From Halobacteriales archaeon QS_1_68_20 (lineage in GTDB: Archaea > Halobacteriota > Halobacteria > Halobacteriales > PXRE01), in NCBI GenBank assembly GCA_003021085.1, contig PXRE01000006.1:176398-240397 (forward strand): 64,000 nucleotides of DNA. The letters are read 5' to 3'. This document shows positions 1,534-2,046 of this stretch, piece after piece. The notes beneath the pieces are model-generated. The model was not told the origin of the DNA, ran no database searches, and saw nothing but the letters and a program-made list of their open reading frames with translations. The translations under genes were made by a program, and so were the position numbers. Each line of letters opens with the position of its first letter. Position 1 is the stretch's first letter.

Positions 1534-2046
1534 TTACTCGTACTTCTTGAAGCCCATCTCACGGGCGACCTCGCGGAAGCACTGCCGGCACAGCCAGATG
1601 TCGTACTTGCCGACCAGACCCTGCTCGCGCTTGGAGACGCGGTAGCCGGGCCGCACCAGGTTGACCGTCACGTCCAGCCCGTAAATGCCGACGTTCGGGT
1701 CGTACTCCTGGCTGGGGAAGTCGGTGTGCTCCTCGATCCCGAAGCTGAAGTTGCCGGTGTCGTCGAACTGCTCGGCCGACAGCTCGACCAGCGGCAGCGC
1801 CGTCTCCAGGAACTCGTGGGCCTGGTCGTCCCGCAGGGTCACCTTCGCACCGATGGGTTCGCCCTGCCGGATGCCGAACTCCGGCTCCGTCGACTTGGCC
1901 TCCGTCCGGACCGGCTGCTGGCCCGTGACCTCCTGGAGGATCTCCTCGGCGTCCGCCAGCGGCTGACCGCCCTGACCGACGCCCATGTGGACGACGACCT
2001 TCTCGACGCGCGGTTCGCGCATCTCGTGGAACTCCGCTTCACTCAT
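1534..2046 (-). CDS. In-frame fusion of ribosomal protein L5 (N-terminal part) and S14 (C-terminal part)
   Basis: Residues 1-140 are haloarchaeal L5 (5S rRNA-binding 50S protein) up to VNLVRPGYRVSKR; residues 141-170 are the last 30 residues of S14 (EQGLVGKYDIW then CRQC and MGFKKYE). The last roughly 30-35 residues of L5, the intergenic bases and the first half of S14, including its first CxxC zinc half-site, are absent. The junction is near 1626, where the L5 and S14 coding sequences would share a short cgcga match. Length is 170 codons, close to a normal L5, so an automated annotation would miss it. S14 without its zinc knuckle should not work, so an assembly or sequencing deletion is the likely cause; a real deletion would need another S14 copy. 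Confidence 0.9.
   Translation of the reverse strand: MSEAEFHEMREPRVEKVVVHMGVGQGGQPLADAEEILQEVTGQQPVRTEAKSTEPEFGIRQGEPIGAKVTLRDDQAHEFLETALPLVELSAEQFDDTGNFSFGIEEHTDFPSQEYDPNVGIYGLDVTVNLVRPGYRVSKREQGLVGKYDIWLCRQCFREVAREMGFKKYE

What the first reader, a model, noticed from the sequence alone, without database searches (positions are those of the whole stretch)
1534..2046. In-frame L5-S14 fusion in an otherwise intact ribosomal operon
The gene between S4e and S8 joins residues 1-140 of L5 to the last 30 residues of S14, at a short shared cgcga sequence. The L5 C-terminus and the S14 zinc half-site are gone. Both proteins are essential, so either the assembly lost about 190-200 bp here, or a second copy exists elsewhere, or the cell uses a truly fused protein, which would be remarkable. 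The in-frame result hides the defect from routine annotation.
Basis: partly seen in the sequence, partly recalled or inferred. Interest (0 to 1): 0.8.

Follow-up and report, generated by a model that had tools for sequence, protein, structure and literature searches.

The report
Likely false L5–S14 gene fusion
In this draft genome of a salt-loving archaeon two essential ribosomal protein genes read as one fused gene, but an L5 protein identical up to the join is intact in another public record, so the join is most likely an assembly error that lost about 190 bases rather than a new kind of protein.

Summary
ORF 1534-2046 (-) reads as residues 1-142 of archaeal L5 running in frame into the last 28-31 residues of S14; the L5 tail and the first CxxC of the S14 zinc site are missing. 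No other copy of either gene was found in the 40 contigs.

The fusion was found nowhere else. A protein search with the junction region returned only the window's own protein. L5 and S14 are separate in 57 of 57 matching relatives and in 80 of 80 named loci.

The key result is P0002, a database protein identical to the window over residues 1-142 that then has a normal L5 tail. It shows that L5 carries R-E-Q exactly where S14 carries R-E-Q, so the join lies at a short direct repeat.

The assembly is a gapped draft: four N-runs in 276 kb inspected, no rpoA1 match, rpoA2 cut by a contig end.

Verdict: most likely a local assembly error that swallowed about 190 nt; less likely a real deletion carried beside intact copies; a working fused protein is very unlikely. 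Raw reads would decide and were not available.

The parts
1534..2046 (-). fused L5-S14 reading frame, 170 aa plus stop
1621..2046 (-). L5-derived part, residues 1-142
   Evidence: identical to P0002 over 142 residues
1534..1629 (-). S14-derived part, residues 140-170 (R-E-Q to the end) plus stop
   Evidence: NCBIfam S14 match 140-170; genome match at profile 24-54
1620..1629 (-). join: codons for R-E-Q shared by L5 and S14 plus the next base; likely repeat CGCGAGCAGG
   Evidence: P0002 reads K-R-E-Q-A; all 16 S14 proteins displayed read R-E-Q-G; repeat length inferred
1579..1590 (-). remaining half of the S14 zinc site (C-R-Q-C)
   Evidence: sequence; 116 of 120 listed S14 hits carry both CxxC pairs
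1139..1531 (-). S8, next gene, intact
   Evidence: 80 relatives align over residues 1-130 of 130 at the median
2046..2849 (-). S4e, preceding gene, no loss seen; 25 residues of its tail lie beyond the median alignment

Best explanation
The fused reading frame is most likely a local assembly error: about 190 bases between L5 and S14 were probably dropped when assembly or gap closing joined two places that share a short direct repeat. Shown: the frame reads L5 residues 1-142 and then S14 from R-E-Q; an L5 identical up to residue 142 is intact in another record; none of the other proteins and genomes examined carries the join; the draft has gaps and lacks other essential genes. Inferred: the repeat is about 10 nt long; the two flanks of a poorly resolved stretch were glued there; the real chromosome carries separate, intact L5 and S14 genes. 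The frame stays open because the repeat encodes the same three residues in the same codon phase in both genes, so no selection for a fused protein needs to be assumed.
For: P0002 is identical over residues 1-142 and then has a normal L5 tail. The junction region finds only the window's own protein among 5,772,631,384 (candidates limited to about 94-297 aa). L5 and S14 are separate in 57 of 57 matching relatives and 80 of 80 named loci; in those 80, L5 goes on for 29-36 residues past the point where the window departs. The bin has 81.5% completeness in 40 contigs, four N-runs of 12-97 nt in 276,330 nt looked at, no rpoA1 match, and rpoA2 only as its last 87 profile positions at a contig end. 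Chen et al. 2020 (PMC7111523, passages read) report that local assembly errors put incorrect protein-coding sequences of metagenome-assembled genomes into public databases.
Against: No reads were available, and there is no N-run or other mark at the join itself. The rest of the ribosomal operon is undamaged, EF-2 is complete and CarB nearly so, so I found no second false deletion of this kind. P0002 may come from a different strain; its DNA and its S14 were not seen. No S14 with the same last 31 residues was found (best 29 of 31; 120 of 254 hits listed). That the genome is a metagenome bin is inferred from its completeness and contig number.
Confidence: 0.8

Rival explanations
1. A real deletion between the two R-E-Q repeats exists in the DNA, but only on some chromosome copies of polyploid cells or in a minority strain, and intact copies supply L5 and S14.
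For: The join is clean and lies at a likely direct repeat, which real deletions also use. [quoted passage not shown] Intact L5 of the same sequence exists.
Against: Efficient equalisation of chromosome copies by gene conversion is reported in H. volcanii (same abstract), so a lethal allele should not last. The assembler would have to prefer the deleted allele. Nothing here shows two alleles in one sample.
Confidence: 0.14
2. The deletion is real and fixed at this place, and a second intact copy of L5 and S14 lies in DNA that is missing from the bin, for example on a plasmid.
For: The bin is 81.5% complete. In the Natronorubrum bangense record a 16,715-nt stretch with L5 and S14 is identical on chromosome and plasmid. 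Five of 57 matching relatives have a second S14-like match.
Against: No second copy in the 40 contigs. The rest of this operon shows no decay, which fits poorly with a redundant copy.
Confidence: 0.05
3. The cell makes and uses a truly fused L5-S14 protein.
For: The frame is open and the neighbouring genes are intact. Engineered ribosomes with subunits tethered through rRNA can support growth (PMC6389949, start of abstract in the listing).
Against: The fused protein lacks the L5 tail, whose motif is kept by 119 of 119 other listed L5 hits, and half of the S14 zinc site. The modelled S14 part has block pLDDT of 37-54. None of the relatives examined has it.
Confidence: 0.01

Closest known systems
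Local assembly errors in metagenome-assembled genomes (Chen et al. 2020, PMC7111523; passages read)
   Same: An automatically assembled draft with gaps, and a coding sequence that relatives and an intact twin contradict
Separate archaeal uL5 and uS14 genes of the ribosomal operon
   Same: Gene order, L5 residues 1-142 and the S14 C-terminal part
   Different: L5 tail, intergenic stretch and S14 N-terminal part are absent
[quoted passage not shown]
   Same: It would resemble this only if the fusion were real and entered both subunits
   Different: Ribo-T joins the rRNAs; here two ribosomal proteins are truncated and nothing shows expression

Membership tests
Archaeal uL5 | Scores over the curated cut-off of NF003258 | tested here: met
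   219 bits, cut-off 166
Archaeal uL5 | C-terminal tail present | tested here: not met
   Match ends at profile 147 of 178; 80 of 80 relatives go on for 29-36 residues
Archaeal uS14, zinc type | Two CxxC pairs | tested here: not met
   Only the second pair is present; 116 of 120 listed S14 hits have both
Archaeal uS14, zinc type | Match over the full profile | tested here: not met
   Profile 24-54 of 54 although over the cut-off
Local assembly error | The join lacks read support | not testable with these tools
   No reads held
Local assembly error | An intact version of the same sequence exists | tested here: met
   P0002 for L5; not shown for S14
Genuine lineage-specific gene fusion | Same fusion in at least one independent genome or protein record | tested here: not met
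   Only the window's own protein; 0 of 57 matching relatives; 0 of 80 named loci. No genome of the same family appears

The most novel reading that the evidence does not exclude
A haloarchaeon makes one L5-S14 protein that joins the large and the small ribosomal subunit: a natural tethered ribosome held by protein instead of rRNA.
Probability: 0.01. Interest if true: 0.95.

Novelty: not a real feature. Interest (0 to 1): 0.1.

Why it matters
As biology it most likely does not matter. As a data-quality case it does: the product passes NCBIfam cut-offs for both L5 and S14, so marker-gene checks and concatenated ribosomal-protein trees could accept it as either gene. If the fusion were real, it would challenge the view that the two ribosomal subunits need separate proteins.

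Tried and rejected
Second copy in the genome: not found in the 40 contigs; not excluded outside them. The only other matches were a 13.6-bit S14 match under the cut-off and short DNA matches, the best of them 28 nt at E 0.002.

Widespread false deletions in this assembly: not found in what I looked at. Fourteen other ribosomal genes in the window align to their ends with at least some relatives. S17 first looked short (relatives have a median of 31 further residues), but some relatives end at the same place. EF-2 is complete. The CarB match ends at profile 944 of 1052 inside an open frame of 1150 aa. Of 20 larger window ORFs put through NCBIfam, 17 had a family match and none showed a second case of this kind.

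A misjoin at LanM-rps12 on contig 28: considered and dropped, because rpoA2 and nusA on contig 7 are also followed by LanM-like genes. That these are two ends of one real region is inferred.

L32e with two helix-hairpin-helix copies as a further artefact: rejected, because 9 of 80 relatives also have two and the copies differ (87% DNA identity over 180 nt). A first motif count missed 69 of 80 loci and was discarded for the tblastn count.

Papers: searches for an assembler joining rule and for L5-S14 fusions gave nothing to the point; the passages found were reference-list entries. (essential genes of archaea) was not used, so that L5 and S14 are essential rests on general knowledge. That some short-read assemblers glue contig ends at overlaps of about 10 nt is recalled and comes from no call.

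Full report
What is there. The window opens in a haloarchaeal ribosomal protein operon on the minus strand. ORF 1534-2046 lies between S4e and S8. NCBIfam finds archaeal L5 over residues 3-142 (219 bits, cut-off 166) and archaeal S14 over residues 140-170 (66 bits, cut-off 54; profile 24-54 of 54). Pfam finds both L5 domains over their cut-offs and S14 under its cut-off (22.9 against 27). For NCBIfam the ORF counts as both proteins while being a complete copy of neither.

Where the join lies. P0002, a database protein listed under ENA on a contig of 18,073 nt, is identical to the window's protein over residues 1-142. It then goes on with a normal L5 tail to 172 residues. L5 has K-R-E-Q-A there, while S14 has R-E-Q-G in all 16 S14 proteins that I displayed, preceded by G in 9 of the 16 and by S, E, N or D in the other 7. 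The tripeptide is in the same codon phase in both genes, so a join there keeps the frame whatever the missing length. Given the codons in the window, the repeat is probably about 10 nt; this is inferred, because P0002's DNA is not held. In 80 named relatives the same register shares only 2-6 nt, L5 mostly reading K-R-D-K there (69 of 80); seven of the 119 other listed L5 hits read K-R-E-Q. Longer repeats somewhere between L5 tail and S14 are common in relatives: the longest is 7-16 nt in 76 of 80 and reached the limit of 30 in 4, which I take for overlap of the two compared stretches. So a repeat of this size is not rare in itself. The distance between the two R codons is 158-247 nt, median 193, in these 80.

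What is missing. The lost L5 tail holds conserved positions (P148, H151, R152, L153 and D157 invariant in 30 aligned L5 proteins, P0002 numbering) and a helix at 155-165 in the AlphaFold2 model of P0002, in blocks with mean pLDDT 85 and 91. In the model of the fusion the L5 core remains and matches Haloarcula marismortui L5 best (4v9f_D); the blocks from residue 141 on have pLDDT 37, 54 and 54, with a low-confidence helix at 146-163. S14 keeps C-R-Q-C and loses the first CxxC; 116 of 120 listed S14 hits carry both pairs.

Is it anywhere else? A search with residues 131-170 against 5,772,631,384 proteins, limited by the tool to candidates of about 94-297 aa that share exact words, returned one protein, the window's own. 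One search covered 59 genomes including the own; 57 of the 58 relatives matched and one (G031) did not, and in all 57 L5 and S14 are separate places; five of the 57 have a second S14-like match. One search covered 392 genomes of the order including the own; 383 matched; the own genome has one match and, as I read the table by eye, each of the other 382 has two or three; the list of places was cut short by the tool. One search found 189 related loci and kept the best 80; all 80 have a full L5 tail and a separate S14. The pattern that found S14 there required the first CxxC, so for the zinc site that count is circular. All relatives are of the same order only; no genome of the same family or genus was available.

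Second copies. Searches of the own genome with PF00673, PF00253, NF003258, NF004424 and the junction DNA found only this place, apart from weak matches under the cut-offs. The genome has 3,385,703 nt in 40 contigs and 81.5% completeness.

State of the assembly. In the window and in stretches of eight contigs, 276,330 nt in all, there are four N-runs, of 12, 26, 97 and 60 nt (the window has none). The 60-nt run starts right after the window's end; masking by the operators could account for some of these runs. RpoA1 has no match, and rpoA2 survives only as its last 87 profile positions at the very end of contig 7. This is a gapped draft that lacks other essential genes, so the absence of an intact L5 or S14 says little about the cell. 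On the other side, 14 other ribosomal genes in the window (L3, L4, L23, L2, S19, L22, S3, L29, S17, L14, L24, S4e, S8, L6; names from my reading of the ORFs) align to within one residue of their relatives' ends in at least some relatives, whereas for the fused ORF the relatives go on for 29-36 residues in 80 of 80. EF-2 is complete.

Explanation. The simplest account is a local assembly error in which about 190 nt were dropped and the flanks joined at R-E-Q. Chen et al. 2020 (PMC7111523; [quoted passage not shown] A real deletion at the repeat is the main rival: H. [quoted passage not shown] A second operon copy on a plasmid is possible in principle: the Natronorubrum bangense record has an identical 16,715-nt stretch on chromosome and plasmid. 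A working fusion would have to do without two conserved parts and serve two subunits; I give it 1%.

Limits. No reads, no DNA for P0002 and no S14 of the same species were available; the best S14 hits share 29 of the last 31 residues (120 of 254 hits listed). The error reading is an inference from an intact twin, the uniqueness of the join and the state of the draft, not a direct demonstration.

Noticed in passing
L149:2-2974 and 3121-4145 (contig 28); L151:1073-7114 and 7215-7933 (contig 7): A LanM lanthipeptide synthetase (678 bits, cut-off 304) stands directly before rps12-rps7, and LanM-like genes (by DNA similarity) follow rpoA2 and nusA on contig 7, so a LanM array may sit between nusA and rps12. 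Gene names other than LanM, rpoA2 and EF-2 are recalled from the sequences.
   Followed up: partly
window 1-598 (-): L32e carries two helix-hairpin-helix copies in tandem (87% DNA identity over 180 nt); 9 of 80 relatives also have two.
   Followed up: yes
L054 and L055, whole (16,715 nt each): The Natronorubrum bangense chromosome and its plasmid unnamed1 hold an identical stretch around L5 and S14: a second ribosomal operon copy or an error in that record.
   Followed up: partly
G009, G012, G022, G035, G053 (third matches): Five of 57 matching relatives have a second S14-like match away from the operon (34-50 bits), perhaps an S14 paralogue.
   Followed up: no
window 30461-31585 (-): Deoxyhypusine synthase: 349 residues are matched by 315 profile positions, so it carries about 34 extra residues.
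   Followed up: no
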